From: Shewanella frigidimarina
GTDB taxonomy: Bacteria > Pseudomonadota > Gammaproteobacteria > Enterobacterales > Shewanellaceae
Assembly (NCBI RefSeq): GCF_003797125.1
Contig: NZ_RKKE01000003.1
Location: 372,001-436,000 of the forward strand
Direction of reading: 5' to 3'
Length of the DNA stretch: 64,000 nt
Shown: piece by piece, positions 6,308 to 52,757 of the stretch
Layout: each line of letters starts with the position of its first letter
Numbering within the stretch: the stretch's first letter is position 1
Made by a program: the position numbers and the translations under genes
The notes under the pieces: generated by a model
Seen by the model: the letters and a program-made list of their open reading frames with translations, nothing else
Databases searched by the model: none
What the model was told of the DNA's origin: nothing

Positions 6308-6383
6308 TCCCCAGTAGTTCAGTTGGTAGAACGGCGGACTGTTAATCCGTATGTCACTGGTTCGAGTCCAGTCTGGGGAGCCA
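6308..6383 (+). tRNA. tRNA-Asn (GUU), copy 1
   Basis: A 76-nt cloverleaf with encoded CCA: acceptor arms TCCCCAG/CTGGGGA, anticodon loop CTGTTAA with anticodon GTT, and T arm GGTTCGAGTCC. It is the first of five tandem copies. Confidence 0.97.
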
Positions 6384-6416
6384 ATTTAGTGTTAAGAGTT
6401 GAGAAGTAAGCGTAAT

Positions 6417-6492
6417 TCCCCAATAGTTCAGTTGGTAGAACGGCGGACTGTTAATCCGTATGTCACTGGTTCGAGTCCAGTTTGGGGAGCCA
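6417..6492 (+). tRNA. tRNA-Asn (GUU), copy 2
   Basis: Identical to copy 1 except that the last acceptor pair is A-T in place of G-C (TCCCCAA/TTGGGGA). This compensated change keeps the stem intact. CCA is encoded. Confidence 0.97.
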
Positions 6493-6515
6493 ACGTTTAC
6501 CGTTATCGAAATAAT

Positions 6516-6591
6516 TCCCCAATAGTTCAGTTGGTAGAACGGCGGACTGTTAATCCGTATGTCACTGGTTCAAGTCCAGTTTGGGGAGCCA
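6516..6591 (+). tRNA. tRNA-Asn (GUU), copy 3
   Basis: Same body as copy 2 but with TTCAAGT in place of TTCGAGT in the T loop (purine 57 is A, not G), a tolerated variant. CCA is encoded. Confidence 0.96.
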
Positions 6592-6620
6592 TCGAGATAA
6601 CACATTTGAAATATTACGCT

Positions 6621-6696
6621 TCCCCAATAGTTCAGTTGGTAGAACGGCGGACTGTTAATCCGTATGTCACTGGTTCGAGTCCAGTTTGGGGAGCCA
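6621..6696 (+). tRNA. tRNA-Asn (GUU), copy 4
   Basis: Identical to copy 2, with acceptor TCCCCAA/TTGGGGA, anticodon GTT and encoded CCA. Confidence 0.97.
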
Positions 6697-6729
6697 TTTC
6701 AACATAAGTGTCAATAGTAATAATACGTT

Positions 6730-6805
6730 TCCCCAGTAGTTCAGTTGGTAGAACGGCGGACTGTTAATCCGTATGTCACTGGTTCGAGTCCAGTCTGGGG
6801 AGCCA
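6730..6805 (+). tRNA. tRNA-Asn (GUU), copy 5
   Basis: Identical to copy 1, with acceptor TCCCCAG/CTGGGGA. The outer copies (1 and 5) share one acceptor allele and the inner three share another. No clear terminator follows; a TTATCCACA sequence lies at 6821-6829. Confidence 0.97.
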
Positions 6806-40400: not shown

Positions 40401-42620
<2,220 letters not shown>

Positions 42621-42703
42621 TTGTTTCCTTCGCAGGTTCTAGCCTGATCAGGTTCAACGGATCCCGAATAAACGGTCTCAGCCATAATGGCACTCCGACA
42701 AGA
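42621..42703 (-). ncRNA. TPP riboswitch (THI element)
   Basis: On the minus strand the aptamer core is clear: CGGAGTGCC, GGCTGAGA (pyrimidine-binding loop), CCGTTGAACCTGATC and the ending CCTGCGAAGGAAACAAG. These are the conserved THI-box blocks in order and spacing. It should repress thiC-thiDE-thiFSGH when thiamine pyrophosphate is high. Confidence 0.96.
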
Positions 42704-42711
42704 TGTCACGC

Positions 42712-45646: not shown

Positions 45647-45723
45647 TGGCGGAGCGGACGGGACTCGAACCCGCGACCCCCGGCGTGACAGGCCGGTATT
45701 CTAACCAACTGAACTACCGCTCC
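45647..45723 (-). tRNA. tRNA-Asp (GUC), promoter-distal copy
   Basis: A 77-nt cloverleaf with encoded CCA, acceptor GGAGCGG/CCGCTCC, anticodon loop CTGTCAC (anticodon GTC) and T arm GGGTTCGAGTCCC. Sequence is identical to the neighbouring copy. Confidence 0.97.
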
Positions 45724-45737
45724 AAAACGGTTTGTAT

Positions 45738-45788
45738 ACACTTAATAAAACTAACAATAGTATAAATATTATCTGTTTTATTAAGTGT
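45738..45788. other. Inverted repeat between the two tRNA-Asp genes
   Basis: A perfect 14-bp inverted repeat ACACTTAATAAAAC (45738-45751) and GTTTTATTAAGTGT (45775-45788) with a 23-base AT-rich loop fills most of the 80-base spacer. In the precursor RNA it would bring the two tRNAs together and may help processing (inference). It lacks a T tail. Confidence 0.8.
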
Positions 45789-45803
45789 AAACAGTCACTT
45801 GAA

Positions 45804-45880
45804 TGGCGGAGCGGACGGGACTCGAACCCGCGACCCCCGGCGTGACAGGCCGGTATTCTAACCAACTGAACTACCGCTCC
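45804..45880 (-). tRNA. tRNA-Asp (GUC), promoter-proximal copy
   Basis: A 77-nt cloverleaf identical to the distal copy, with encoded CCA and anticodon GTC. It is first in the transcript, 16 bases after the -10 box. Confidence 0.97.
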
Positions 45881-48635: not shown

Positions 48636-48674
48636 TTCGGTTTTAGTTATTTAACCTTCGCGCTGGATGATCAC

Positions 48675-48845
48675 AGTTATCAAACTGTTCTTTGCCATGC
48701 TAACAGGGTTGCACTGACCTGCAATAAGCTAGATATTGACTCGTCAATCAGCCCTGTTAGTACAAAATGGCATATTGATATGAAAATAGTTCAAATATTC
48801 AGGTGTTGGCTTTCGGACTTCATATCTTAAACCGAGCGGAGGTTA
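48675..48845. repeat. Structured intergenic element, copy A
   Basis: A segment in the convergent gap between rnhA and the methyltransferase gene that is clearly related to 52541-52715. Its core (48700-48760) has a nested fold: outer stem CTAACAGGG/CCCTGTTAG, and inside it two hairpins TTGCA/TGCAA (48709-48724) and ATTGAC/GTCAAT (48735-48748). No coding frame lies in it. Confidence 0.7.
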
Positions 48846-48848
48846 TTT

Positions 48849-49628
48849 TTATGATTTTGAACGGTTCAATGTCTGGGTCTCAATACTCGGAGTATGAGTT
48901 AATCCGTTACGGCCAGCCGATGGCGCCGTTGACCAGTTGGGTGCTTTTACCTTCGACTTATCTTTAATCGGTGTAAGTGGAGTCGTCATTTTGCGAGCCA
49001 CAATTAAGTAAACACTGCCGGTACTAGGTAGCCAGTTAGCGATACTTTTTTGCCACAATGGTGCTTGTTGAGGCTTGCTCGGTTGATTAGGTGTGCTGAC
49101 CCCGCGTTGGCCTAATAACGAATGGTACATTAACCGTTCATCTGCTAATACTTTATATCCCAGTAACCCAAGCCAATCTTTTACCCTTGATGGCATAAAA
49201 AACTGCCCGTTCCAAGGTAATTTAGTTTGATATTTTGGCAAGATTTTGCCTATAAAAGCTGGACTGATGGGATTAAAGCCGACAATAAAAATATAACCAC
49301 TGCTGATGAGCACTCGGTCGAACTCTCGTAAAATTTGATAAGGATCAGATTCAAATTCTAATAGAAAACAACTTAACACCGCATCAATTGCACTTTGTTG
49401 TACGGGTAAATGATGCGGATCAGCCTGAATATTCGCATCTGAGCCGTCATAGACAGAAAAATGTCGTGCGATGTTGCAATGTAAACTGTTTAACTGGCTA
49501 CTTAACGCCCCGGCTTTAAGAAAATGATAGCCAAATATTCGCGGCCACCAAGGGGCTAATTTAGCTTCAATCTCAGCTTGCAATAATTCACCAAAAGGCA
49601 AATCTTGCCAAATAAGGGGTTTTAACAT
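48849..49628 (-). CDS. SAM-dependent methyltransferase, YafS-like
   Basis: The 259-residue product (ATG at 49628) lies between rnhA and gloB, the position of yafS in E. coli. It has the distinctive A-D-P-H-H-L-P-V-Q-Q-S-A-I-D-A-V-L segment, then L-L-E-F-E-S-D-P and L-R-E-F-D-R-V-L..G-F-N-P-I-S-P, of a small methyltransferase group. The glycine-rich motif I is poorly kept (the corresponding place reads F-S-V-Y-D-G-S-D). The Thr/Pro/Lys-rich C terminus is low-complexity. Substrate unknown. Confidence 0.8.
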   Translation of the reverse strand: MLKPLIWQDLPFGELLQAEIEAKLAPWWPRIFGYHFLKAGALSSQLNSLHCNIARHFSVYDGSDANIQADPHHLPVQQSAIDAVLSCFLLEFESDPYQILREFDRVLISSGYIFIVGFNPISPAFIGKILPKYQTKLPWNGQFFMPSRVKDWLGLLGYKVLADERLMYHSLLGQRGVSTPNQPSKPQQAPLWQKSIANWLPSTGSVYLIVARKMTTPLTPIKDKSKVKAPNWSTAPSAGRNGLTHTPSIETQTLNRSKS

Positions 49629-49804
49629 GGAGCCCGCCAACTAATACTTTGCAAAAATGTCATATTTTCTCAACCCATCAACTTTACCATAGCTTGTTTG
49701 ATGTTCAGCTAACCATCATTGATACTTTCAGAATAACTTCACTTGAAGTTATTTAACGATATCCGTTACCCTAACAGATAGTCAATCATCACTCGAGTCA
49801 GATT

Positions 49805-50584
49805 ATGCTTAACGTTCACGCCATTCCAGCTTTTAATGACAACTACCTTTGGTTAATTCATCAAACAAGTAGCCTTGATGCTTACGTAGTTGATCCAGGC
49901 TGTGGCCAAAGTGTTATCGATTATTTAGCCACCACAGAACTTAACTTAGTCGGTATTCTCATTACCCACCACCACAGCGACCACACTGGCGGTATAAAAC
50001 AACTGCAACAGCACTTCAACAATAGTCTTATTGTTTATGGTCCGAGTAACGAACGTATCGATGGTTTAACCCACCCATTAACAGTTACATCGGATATAAA
50101 TATTGAGATACCTCATTTAGGGCTTACTCAGGTGATAGCCGTACCAGGACATACTTTAGGTCATATTGCCTACTATATTGATGATAAATTATTTTGTGGC
50201 GACACCTTATTCAGTGGCGGATGTGGACGGTTATTCGAAGGCACTCCGACGCAAATGCTGCAATCGTTGACCGTGTTGGCAAACTTACCCGACCAAACCC
50301 AAGTTTTCTGTGCTCATGAATACACACAATCCAACCTTAATTTCGCCTTACATGTCACACCCAATAATTTACAGTTGATTGATTATGCCCATAAAGTTAA
50401 TCAATTACGCTCACAAAACATACCAACCATCCCTAGCACAATCGCGACAGAAAAAGCCATAAACCCGTTCCTACGTTGTCATATAAATGAGACTCAAGTC
50501 GCAATATCAACAGAATACAAAATAGCGAATATAGATGATATTCAGACATTTACATTATTAAGGGAATGGAAAAATCAATTTTAG
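49805..50584 (+). CDS. gloB: Hydroxyacylglutathione hydrolase (glyoxalase II)
   Basis: GloB hydrolyses S-lactoylglutathione to lactate and glutathione, completing the pathway begun by GloA. The 259-residue product has the metallo-beta-lactamase signature T-H-H-H-S-D-H (54-60) with both metal-site sets, the G-H-T-x-G-H and D-T-L-F-S-G-G-C-G-R motifs and the C-terminal glutathione-binding helix (N-P-F-L-R). It is divergent from the yafS-like gene. Confidence 0.96.
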   Translation: MLNVHAIPAFNDNYLWLIHQTSSLDAYVVDPGCGQSVIDYLATTELNLVGILITHHHSDHTGGIKQLQQHFNNSLIVYGPSNERIDGLTHPLTVTSDINIEIPHLGLTQVIAVPGHTLGHIAYYIDDKLFCGDTLFSGGCGRLFEGTPTQMLQSLTVLANLPDQTQVFCAHEYTQSNLNFALHVTPNNLQLIDYAHKVNQLRSQNIPTIPSTIATEKAINPFLRCHINETQVAISTEYKIANIDDIQTFTLLREWKNQF

Positions 50585-50734
50585 ATTAACATGAAAACAC
50601 TTTAATAAGACATGCCAAATAATTTAATCTACAATGCCAAACTGAACTAAAGCATGTCCAAAAGAGTCTCATAGGCATTTGGTATGTTCGCCCTTTTTTT
50701 TACGCCCTGAGAACTTGAGGAAGTGTATCTTCAA

Positions 50735-52288
50735 ATGAAAGCAAACTTGATTATTATAGCTGGCAGTATGCTGGCTATAACGGGGTGCCAGACACTCCAT
50801 ACTGCAGAGCCAAGTTCTGATAGTACAACCCAGACTGTTACAGCTAACGCTAAAAACAAAAAATCAGCGACCGTAACCCTTGAGCAAATTGAAGAACAAG
50901 TTGCTCAAGTTAACGATTTATGGCTCAGGATCAGCAACCAAATGCGCTTTCCTGTTGTCGATAATGCTTTGGTTGCTCAGTACCGCCAATGGTACATCGA
51001 TAATCCTATGCATTTAGAAATCGTGACTCAACGTGCTCAGCCATATCTGTATTACATTGTTGAACAGTTAAAAAAACGCAATTTACCTTTAGAGCTAGCA
51101 TTGCTGCCTATTGTTGAAAGTGGTTTTGACCCACTAGCCCATTCACCAAGTGATGCATCGGGTTTATGGCAATTAACCTCACCAACGGCCATGTCGTTTG
51201 GCGTAAAGACAAATTGGTGGTATGACGGACGCCGTGATGTTGCCTCATCGACAAAAGCAGCTTTAGATTTAATGGAATACCTTTACGCCAAAATGGATCA
51301 CAATTGGTTATATACCATTGCCGCTTATAACTCTGGTGAAGGTCGAATATTCAATGCCATAAAACATAACCAAGCCCGCGGAAAATCGACAGATTTCTGG
51401 TCATTATCGCTGCCAAGAGAAACCGCTCACTATGTCCCCCAGTTATTAGCATTGGCAGATGTCATTAAACATGCAGATAAGTACGGCATCAATTTAACGC
51501 CTATAGATAACTCACCTCAAATAGAGGTAGTCGATATTGAAAGCCAACTCGACATTAATTTAGCGGCTGATTTGGCTCAAATTGACATAAATGATTTAAA
51601 AGCGATTAATCCAGGTTTAAAGCGCTGGGCAACAGCCCCACAAGGTCCACATCAATTGATTGTGCCTAGTGATAAAGCGGCATCCTTTAAACGAGCATTA
51701 GCCACTATTGAACCAAACTCCCGTATTAACTGGGTTCGTTATAAAATTAAGTCTGGTGATAGCATCAGTGAAATTGCCGACCAATTTGAAACCACGGCTA
51801 CATTAATAAGAAGCAGTAACGGTATTAAAGGCAATAATATTATTGCTGGTCGATTTTTAATTATTCCTGTTGCGGCAAAAGATCCAGATTTAGCCACCAT
51901 GACCGCAGACCAAGTACTGGCACGCAAAACGGTGGTCAAATCAAGCCCAAACAAGCAAGCTTATATCATTAAATCTGGTGATTCATTATGGAAGATAGCG
52001 CAGTCACAGCAAGTGACTGTCGCACAATTAATGAAATGGAATAATCTTAAAAAACAATCCACGTTAGCCATCGGTAAATCATTAGTTATTTTTCCTAATG
52101 AAGTCGCCATTAACACTGCAAGCAATGATAAAACGGTTAGCTATCGCGTCCAATCAGGTGACTCTTTAGCGCGTATAGCACTTAAATATAAGGTTACCGT
52201 TGCAGAGTTAATCGAATGGAACAGTTTACAAAATAGTAAATTGATCCAACCTGGACAGATACTGAAACTGATTGTGACCAATAGCTAG
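50735..52288 (+). CDS. mltD: Membrane-bound lytic murein transglycosylase D
   Basis: MltD is an outer-membrane lipoprotein that cleaves peptidoglycan glycan strands, releasing anhydromuropeptides. The 517-residue product (ATG at 50735) has a lipobox I-T-G-C, an SLT domain (about 100-220) with catalytic Glu in L-P-I-V-E-S-G-F and S-G-L-W-Q-L/A-Y-N-S-G-E-G, and three LysM repeats with Y-x-I-K-S-G-D-S at about 330, 400 and 460. A GTG start at 50723 lies too close to its GAGG. Terminator follows. Confidence 0.95.
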   Translation: MKANLIIIAGSMLAITGCQTLHTAEPSSDSTTQTVTANAKNKKSATVTLEQIEEQVAQVNDLWLRISNQMRFPVVDNALVAQYRQWYIDNPMHLEIVTQRAQPYLYYIVEQLKKRNLPLELALLPIVESGFDPLAHSPSDASGLWQLTSPTAMSFGVKTNWWYDGRRDVASSTKAALDLMEYLYAKMDHNWLYTIAAYNSGEGRIFNAIKHNQARGKSTDFWSLSLPRETAHYVPQLLALADVIKHADKYGINLTPIDNSPQIEVVDIESQLDINLAADLAQIDINDLKAINPGLKRWATAPQGPHQLIVPSDKAASFKRALATIEPNSRINWVRYKIKSGDSISEIADQFETTATLIRSSNGIKGNNIIAGRFLIIPVAAKDPDLATMTADQVLARKTVVKSSPNKQAYIIKSGDSLWKIAQSQQVTVAQLMKWNNLKKQSTLAIGKSLVIFPNEVAINTASNDKTVSYRVQSGDSLARIALKYKVTVAELIEWNSLQNSKLIQPGQILKLIVTNS

Positions 52289-52540
52289 TTAGCTTTGCCT
52301 ATAAGGGACTGTAACTCAACAAAGGTTATTGGTATTAGAATCGCTATTGGTATGAATTAAATACTCAGTTAAATTCAGCCATAAAAAACGGACAAGTTAT
52401 TACTTGTCCGTTTTTTATGGCATAACATTAATAAATCAACTGTTTCGCAGTGTTCAATAATTTGATTAGGCTAACCATACTGCCATTACAGCACATTACT
52501 ATCCATTTTTAACCTAGTTAACCTCAACTGGGATAATAAA
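52289..52540. other. First part of the mltD-asmA convergent gap
   Basis: The 523-base gap 52289-52811 holds a bidirectional terminator, copy B of the structured element and a second hairpin next to asmA, all listed separately. Nothing else is visible in the remainder. Confidence 0.5.
52383..52416. terminator. Bidirectional terminator after mltD
   Basis: A 10-bp core stem ACGGACAAGT/ACTTGTCCGT, extended by flanking A and T runs, with TATT loop and TTTTTT tail, 95 bases past the mltD stop. Confidence 0.88.
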
Positions 52541-52715
52541 CGTTTATCAAACAGTCCTTTGTATCGCTAACTGTGTTGCATTGACTTGCAATAGGCTAGC
52601 TATTGACGTACCAATTTGCCTTATTAGCAAAACAAAAGACAAGTTTGATATAAAATAGGCCGAATATTGTCATTTCGACTCACATATCCCACTTCTTAAC
52701 ACGAGTTGAGGTTAG
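52541..52715. repeat. Structured intergenic element, copy B
   Basis: Related to copy A with about three quarters of bases shared in the first 90 positions (TTATCAAAC, CTTTG, GCTAAC, GTTGCA, TGCAATA, GCTAG, TATTGAC blocks in the same order). The inner hairpin TTGCA/TGCAA (52576-52591) is kept exactly. The second inner stem is reduced to ATTG/CAAT (52602-52615) and the outer stem to GCTAA/TTAGC (52566-52628). Confidence 0.7.
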
Positions 52716-52757
52716 TTAACTGCATACCATATAGCAGTAACAAAAGCCGCTTTGGAC

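What the first reader, a model, noticed from the sequence alone, without database searches (positions are those of the whole stretch)
48675..52715. Diverged foldable element present twice in convergent intergenic gaps
Copies at 48675-48845 and 52541-52715 share ordered sequence blocks. Both sit between convergent genes, and both can form a nested three-stem fold. The TTGCA/TGCAA hairpin is identical while other stems changed. This could be a non-autonomous mobile element, a bidirectional 3'-end structure, or an RNA family.
Basis: seen in the sequence. Interest (0 to 1): 0.58.

Follow-up and report, generated by a model that had tools for sequence, protein, structure and literature searches.

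The report
Structured hitch-hiker transposon of IS982 elements
The two repeats are old copies of a roughly 195-base mobile DNA element found in many marine gamma-proteobacteria; it carries no gene, has the same ends and insertion pattern as IS982-type jumping genes, and keeps an elaborate hairpin whose paired bases changed together in the lineages that spread.

Summary
They belong to a MITE family. A covariance model gives 42 matches (E<=0.1) in this genome, three of them antisense repeats, and finds the family in 60 of 394 genomes of the order (18 of 115 genera, 8 families). Of 142 elements, 77 have an exact target duplication (12.3 expected after shuffling), consensus T-ANNT-A. Two clean empty sites show a precise 195-bp insertion plus a 4-bp duplication. 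IS982-family insertion sequences have the same ends and duplications, so IS982 is the probable mobiliser; this genome has no such transposase at E<=1e-50. The 51-pair fold covaries strongly: 52 inner compensatory events in 42 held-out elements, against 3.6+-1.9 expected. In ten comparisons of resident orthologues pairing decays as neutrality predicts. The fold is thus probably selected during spread, not for host use; how it acts is unknown. No Rfam family matches. IS982-derived MITEs are known (MITECca01), but I found no report of a family this widespread with a covarying fold.

The parts
48653..48844 (+). copy 1: full element, 192 bp, old and diverged
   Evidence: TIR pair with direct repeats; model R1 109.1 bits; orthologues in relatives G025 and G078
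48649..48652 (.). left target duplication ATTT of copy 1
48845..48848 (.). right target duplication ATTT of copy 1
48678..48781 (+). long conserved hairpin of copy 1 (helices 2 to 5 of alignment A2)
   Evidence: A2 columns 28-142
52520..52713 (+). copy 2: full element, 194 bp, closer to the family consensus
   Evidence: TIR pair with direct repeats; model R1 172 bits; orthologue in G025
52516..52519 (.). left target duplication AGTT of copy 2
52714..52717 (.). right target duplication AGTT of copy 2
52520..52536 (+). left terminal inverted repeat of copy 2 (one base missing against the 18-base consensus AACCTSARYTCNGGATAA)
52696..52713 (-). right terminal inverted repeat of copy 2
52545..52650 (+). 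long conserved hairpin of copy 2 (helices 2 to 5 of alignment A2)
   Evidence: A2 columns 28-142
52651..52695 (+). variable right arm of copy 2; differs between subfamilies
   Evidence: alignments

Best explanation
Both loci are copies of a gene-less transposable element (MITE) of about 195 bp that is moved in trans by IS982-family (DDE) transposases. SHOWN: terminal inverted repeats, target duplications with consensus T-ANNT-A, precise empty sites, many copies, IS982 elements with the same ends and the same duplications, recent amplification in a genome that also holds IS982 ends, and a covarying fold. INFERRED: that the IS982 transposase does the moving; and that the fold (a long hairpin plus a variable arm, closed by the paired ends) is selected while the element spreads, because lineages that spread keep pairing through compensatory change and resident copies do not. 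MOST LIKELY MECHANISM (about even odds): the single-stranded element folds so that its two ends meet, giving the transposase a better substrate. A fold that makes insertions harmless to neighbouring transcripts is the alternative. In this genome the copies are probably immobile now, since no related transposase was found.
For: Copies: 38 BLAST matches at E<=1 in the own genome and 42 model matches at E<=0.1, three of them antisense rows of the same places; 60 of 394 order genomes, 18 of 115 genera, 8 families. Ends and target: 77 of 142 elements have an exact 4-bp duplication against a shuffled mean of 12.3, maximum 24; of those 77, T precedes 75 and A follows 73. Empty sites: the L012 insertion is absent in G078, which reads ...ATGATAAATATTG..., and the L017 insertion is absent in G044...CTTAAATAAACTG...; each holds AAAT once. 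Partner: S. decolorationis plasmid pNi1-3 carries a 997-bp IS982 whose left end is AACCTGAACTCGGGATAA with duplication AATTT; the transposase matches PF13612 at 2.1e-75. Sixteen further IS loci of the 32 scanned show exact 4- or 5-bp duplications of the same kind. G339 holds at least 27 paired copies plus IS982 ends; six copies read are at least 99% identical, all with exact duplications. 15 of 24 IS982-positive genomes against 45 of 370 others carry the MITE, p=4.8e-8. Fold: 36 compensatory events against 4.5+-2.1 in 61 sequences; 52 inner events against 3.6+-1.9, maximum 10 of 300 nulls, in 42 held-out sequences.
Against: The own genome has no IS982 relative at E<=1e-50, so movement here is past. 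45 of 60 MITE-positive genomes also lack one at that threshold. The co-occurrence test is not corrected for phylogeny. MITE and IS share only about 18 to 25 terminal bases, so the MITE is not a simple deletion product. The IS right end (AACCTGAGATCGGTTTAA in pNi1-3) differs from both MITE ends. No transposition was observed. The resident-copy test rests on ten comparisons from nine sites with 73 changed pairs, and paired columns did change less than unpaired ones (8.3% against 14.3%, p=4e-5). I attribute part of that to poor alignment of the variable arm, but it could mean some constraint in place.
Confidence: 0.85

Rival explanations
1. Host-selected RNA: the element is a bidirectional 3'-end structure or regulatory RNA that the host keeps because it terminates, protects or cleaves transcripts.
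For: Enrichment between convergent genes (49 of 133 against 39 of 181); strong RNA folds; fewer substitutions in paired columns of resident copies.
Against: In resident orthologues 23 of 73 changed pairs stay canonical against 18.3 (11-26) under neutrality, and 3 are compensatory against 1.9. Contexts are mixed. Empty orthologous sites occur. Exact target duplications and a clear transposon partner explain the distribution without host function.
Confidence: 0.1
2. The covariation is a by-product of DNA: quasi-palindrome correction by template switching makes the arms match without any selection for structure.
For: The element is a long imperfect palindrome; such correction is known in bacteria (recalled, not looked up).
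Against: Correction should also act on resident copies, yet these show 3 compensatory pairs of 73 changed. A mismatched internal loop (CTGCGTT/CGCCTTG) stays nearly invariant instead of being corrected (columns 61-113 and 65-109 keep G.T in 58 and 57 of 61).
Confidence: 0.1
3. The fold matters only after insertion: it insulates neighbouring genes (for example as terminator or RNase III target), so folded copies are tolerated and are the ones that survive to spread.
For: Only 1 of 133 elements lies inside an ORF of 90 aa or more; published examples of RNase III cleavage of Correia/NEMIS MITE transcripts (PMC10969869, passages).
Against: No data here separate this from a direct role in transposition; no in-place maintenance seen.
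Confidence: 0.3
4. An attC-like or IS200/IS605-like element moved as single-stranded DNA by a tyrosine recombinase or Y1 transposase.
For: Conserved hairpin and strand asymmetry: the - strand folds better in 113 of 132 elements.
Against: Variable 4-5 bp target duplications and 18-bp inverted ends identical to DDE-transposase IS982 elements.
Confidence: 0.02

Closest known systems
MITECca01/MITECca02 of Cardinium (PMC9769881, passages read)
   Same: Short gene-less elements with the ends of an IS982-family IS (ISCca4), mostly intergenic, thought to be moved by the IS982 transposase.
   Different: About 240 bp, confined to one Cardinium strain, retains a little internal IS sequence next to the left end; no conserved fold is reported in the passages read (the term 'secondary structure' does not occur in the text). 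The present family spans 18 sampled genera, shares only the ends with IS982, and has a covarying 51-pair fold.
IS982-family insertion sequences (PF13612), e.g. on pNi1-3 of Shewanella decolorationis
   Same: Same 18-bp end AACCTGAACTCGGGATAA and same 4-5 bp A..T target duplication in a T...A context.
   Different: About 1 kb with a transposase gene; right end differs; no similarity inside.
MITEAba12 (PMC6382973, passages read)
   Same: Fixed-length bacterial MITE with ends matching an IS and target duplications, shared across a family of bacteria.
   Different: 113 bp, partner ISAba12 with 9-bp duplications, only weak predicted secondary structure.
ERIC / Correia (NEMIS) elements (review PMC10969869, passages read)
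   Same: Intergenic MITEs with folding transcripts; ERIC also occurs in Vibrionaceae.
   Different: Different sequence, ends and length as far as I recall; not compared by alignment here.

Membership tests
MITE (miniature inverted-repeat transposable element) | short, no transposase gene | tested here: met
   about 195 bp in nearly all model matches; no ORF of 60 aa or more listed within either copy
MITE (miniature inverted-repeat transposable element) | terminal inverted repeats | tested here: met
   17-pair terminal helix, 92.5% of cells paired
MITE (miniature inverted-repeat transposable element) | target-site duplication | tested here: met
   77 of 142 exact against 12.3 shuffled
MITE (miniature inverted-repeat transposable element) | insertion polymorphism / empty sites | tested here: met
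   two clean empty sites; two further absences with untidy junctions (L015 in G044, L019 in G025 and G078)
IS982-dependent MITE | ends match an IS982-family IS | tested here: met
   exact 18-bp left end in L289 and L291; right MITE end matches the same IS left end
IS982-dependent MITE | same target duplication as the IS | tested here: met
IS982-dependent MITE | mobilised by the transposase in trans | not testable with these tools
   needs an assay; co-occurrence and G339 amplification are indirect
IS982-dependent MITE | internal deletion product of the IS (not needed for dependence, but usual for type I MITEs) | tested here: not met
   six MITEs against 32 IS-bearing loci: matches beyond chance confined to the terminal 18-25 bases
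known Rfam RNA family | match at gathering score, or any convincing weak match | tested here: not met
ERIC | ERIC consensus sequence | not tested
   no ERIC sequence was aligned; difference is from recall
integron attC site | site-specific recombination without target duplication, next to cassettes | tested here: not met
   variable duplicated targets, dispersed intergenic copies

The most novel reading that the evidence does not exclude
An ancient parasite of a parasite: a gene-less DNA element that has lived off IS982 transposases across at least eight bacterial families by means of a conserved structured nucleic acid (RNA or folded single strand) that is required for its mobilisation or recruits the transposase, making it a DNA-transposon analogue of SINEs, which hijack a partner through a structured nucleic acid.
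Probability: 0.3. Interest if true: 0.85.

Novelty: new variant of a known kind. Interest (0 to 1): 0.6.

Why it matters
Bacterial MITEs are usually described as short-lived internal-deletion products of one IS in one lineage. This family is old, widespread, almost constant in length, unrelated to its partner beyond the ends, and keeps a covarying fold that seems to be lost once a copy is stuck. That makes a clear question testable: does nucleic-acid structure help a non-autonomous element compete for a transposase? It also supplies an annotation model for many unexplained intergenic repeats in Shewanella, Pseudoalteromonas, Colwellia, Catenovulum, Thalassotalea and other genera.

Tried and rejected
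Rfam search of the window and of each copy: nothing. RNAalifold on the + strand of A2 gave only 17 pairs, so I named a structure from column covariation. A single-pair covariation test with a branch-preserving null gave no individually significant pair (0 of 18336 at E<0.05; the best, E about 0.2, were canonical pairs of the fold); only the aggregate tests are significant. I first took fixed G.T pairs as evidence for the + strand; counting then showed more A.C than G.T outside those two columns (68 against 38) and better folding of the - strand, so strand is stated only as a lean to -. TIR pairs 500-6000 bp apart in the fetched loci gave no autonomous element; the one candidate was ordinary genes beside a solo end. 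Phage collection: no match. Two viral-contig matches to the end pattern looked like chance. Motif searches in the literature found only unrelated papers. Literature searches for Shewanella/marine MITEs, IS982 MITEs and covarying MITEs; no description of this family seen in the listings or in the passages read, but only open-licence papers are held, and the 2008 paper on Shewanella oneidensis mobile elements is not.

Full report
What is there. The two stretches are related (89 nt at 75% identity), and each is a complete element bounded by terminal inverted repeats: 48653-48844 and 52520-52713, flanked by ATTT/ATTT and AGTT/AGTT. Both lie between convergent genes, an rnhA-like gene and a methyltransferase-like gene for copy 1, a LysM/lytic-transglycosylase-like gene and an AsmA-like gene for copy 2 (gene names by inspection of the translations, not searched).

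A family. BLAST with copy 2 gives 38 matches at E<=1 in the own genome. A covariance model built from 61 full-length elements (R1) gives 42 at E<=0.1; three of these are antisense rows of places already listed, and the weakest are doubtful. In the genus 31 of 117 genomes have a BLAST match at E<=0.001 (at most a few candidates scored per genome). In the order 60 of 394 genomes, 18 of 115 genera and 8 families match R1 at E<=1e-6. Named carriers: Shewanella, Colwellia, Thalassotalea and Catenovulum by an exact end pattern (26 stretches), Pseudoalteromonas and Catenovulum replicons by BLAST (8 plasmid-collection records). No phage record matches. End patterns occur 2 to 82 times in 11 further genomes or replicons, with one match in all to the reversed control. 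Nearly all model matches span the full model and are 190 to 200 bp long.

It is a transposon. Of 142 distinct elements 77 have an exact 4-bp direct repeat, against 12.3 on average and 24 at most when right flanks are shuffled; the repeats read A-N-N-T (A in 77, T in 72 of 77), preceded by T in 75 and followed by A in 73. A few elements show 5 bp. The convention could equally be 6-7 bp with shorter ends. Joined-flank queries for six prepared sites and part of a seventh found clean empty sites in relatives for two: the L012 insertion in G078 and the L017 insertion in G044, each with AAAT once. Two more sites (L015 in G044; L019 in G025 and G078) lack the element but have untidy junctions. Copy 1 is absent in G020, G008 and G044 and present in G025 and G078; copy 2 is present in G025.

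The partner. In genome G339 the ends occur 45+42 times (reversed control 0), giving at least 27 paired 195-bp copies. Six copies read are identical or differ at one base, and all have exact duplications. In the same genome nine contig ends carry related ends followed by other sequence: five lead into a reading frame, four are the opposite end. These match the left (95% over 126 nt) and right (80%) ends of an IS982 element in another genome of the same genus. The plasmid collection gave the annotated case: Shewanella decolorationis pNi1-3 holds a 997-bp IS982 with left end AACCTGAACTCGGGATAA and duplication AATTT; its transposase matches PF13612 at 2.1e-75. Of 32 IS loci scanned, 27 gave a pair of such ends (a few of them poor), five gave none, and besides pNi1-3 sixteen have exact 4- or 5-bp duplications. 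MITE and IS share only the terminal 18 to 25 bases. Of 394 genomes 24 have a transposase at E<=1e-50; 15 of these 24 and 45 of the other 370 have the MITE (Fisher p=4.8e-8, not corrected for phylogeny). The own genome has none at that threshold.

The fold. The ends pair with each other and enclose a long hairpin (five helices, 51 pairs in the named structure) and a variable right arm. On the 61-sequence alignment 89.8% of cells pair; the covariation score is 0.220, against 0.097 for shuffles and 0.040-0.056 for slid partners. On a tree, 36 double compensatory changes fall on single branches against 4.5+-2.1 (maximum 11 of 500 nulls); 23 of these are in inner helices against 2.4+-1.5, and slid controls give 1-3. 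On 42 held-out elements, aligned without structure, the inner count is 52 against 3.6+-1.9 (maximum 10 of 300), slid controls 0-4, and the ends 13 against 2.1. These 42 are what remained of 49 listed elements after near-duplicates were dropped in the script. No single pair passes a test over all column pairs on its own. Tree and ancestral states come from about 195 columns and are rough.

When is the fold selected? I compared ten pairs of resident orthologues (nine own-genome sites; copy 1 counted in two relatives). Of 73 changed pairs 23 stay canonical (neutral simulation 18.3, 95% 11-26) and 3 are compensatory (neutral 1.9). Elements with exact duplications pair slightly better than those with two or more mismatches (0.890 against 0.856, p=0.05). 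Both fit decay after insertion, so the fold seems to be selected while elements spread. Against this, paired columns changed less than unpaired ones (8.3% against 14.3%); poor alignment of the variable arm may explain part of that. The - strand folds better in 113 of 132 elements, with mean z-scores -6.4 against -5.0 in 61, which hints at one functional strand, as RNA or single-stranded DNA.

Known and new. IS982-derived MITEs exist (MITECca01 in Cardinium, PMC9769881, passages). Fixed-length, family-wide MITEs exist (MITEAba12, PMC6382973, passages), and stable transcript folds are a known MITE trait (PMC10969869, passages). IS982 expansions are known in luminous symbionts (PMC6020299, passages), without mention of MITEs there. 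What I did not find described, within the searches listed in Tried and rejected, is an IS982-type MITE that is spread over many genera, unrelated to its partner inside, and held together by a covarying fold. I file it as a new variant of a known kind.

Noticed in passing
L289 2523-2595 and corresponding leaders in 17 further IS982 loci printed: The IS982 elements carry a conserved leader hairpin directly before the transposase start: apical CTTTCGACCAAG-like loop, and a lower stem whose two arms change together between elements (GCCCTCC/GGAGGGC, GCTGGTTC/GAACCAGC, GCCCACC/GGTGGGC, GCCTGTTCC/GGAACAGGC). It may hide the ribosome site; no Rfam match.
   Followed up: partly
window 52378-52421: A perfect 20-bp inverted repeat with a 4-nt loop, ending in a T-rich stretch, between the lytic-transglycosylase-like gene and copy 2: a likely bidirectional terminator, separate from the element.
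   Followed up: no
own genome, loci L067-L086: Many single or decayed element ends without a partner (for example L069, L070, L074), some beside terminator-like hairpins.
   Followed up: partly
L324 525-732 against L015 1936-2130: At the place where the own genome has a subfamily B copy, relative G025 seems to hold a copy of a different subfamily; independent insertion at one site, or exchange.
   Followed up: no
L100 7630-7684: A 55-bp derivative in a Thalassotalea contig that keeps both ends and a TAAATA duplication but has lost the interior, suggesting the ends alone can move or that the interior was deleted later.
   Followed up: no
L095 2869-3340: A 472-bp pair of element ends in Shewanella basaltis with other sequence inside the element.
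   Followed up: no
window 42608-42707: TPP riboswitch on the - strand, and tRNA genes at 6308-6802 and 45650-45880, all ordinary.
   Followed up: no
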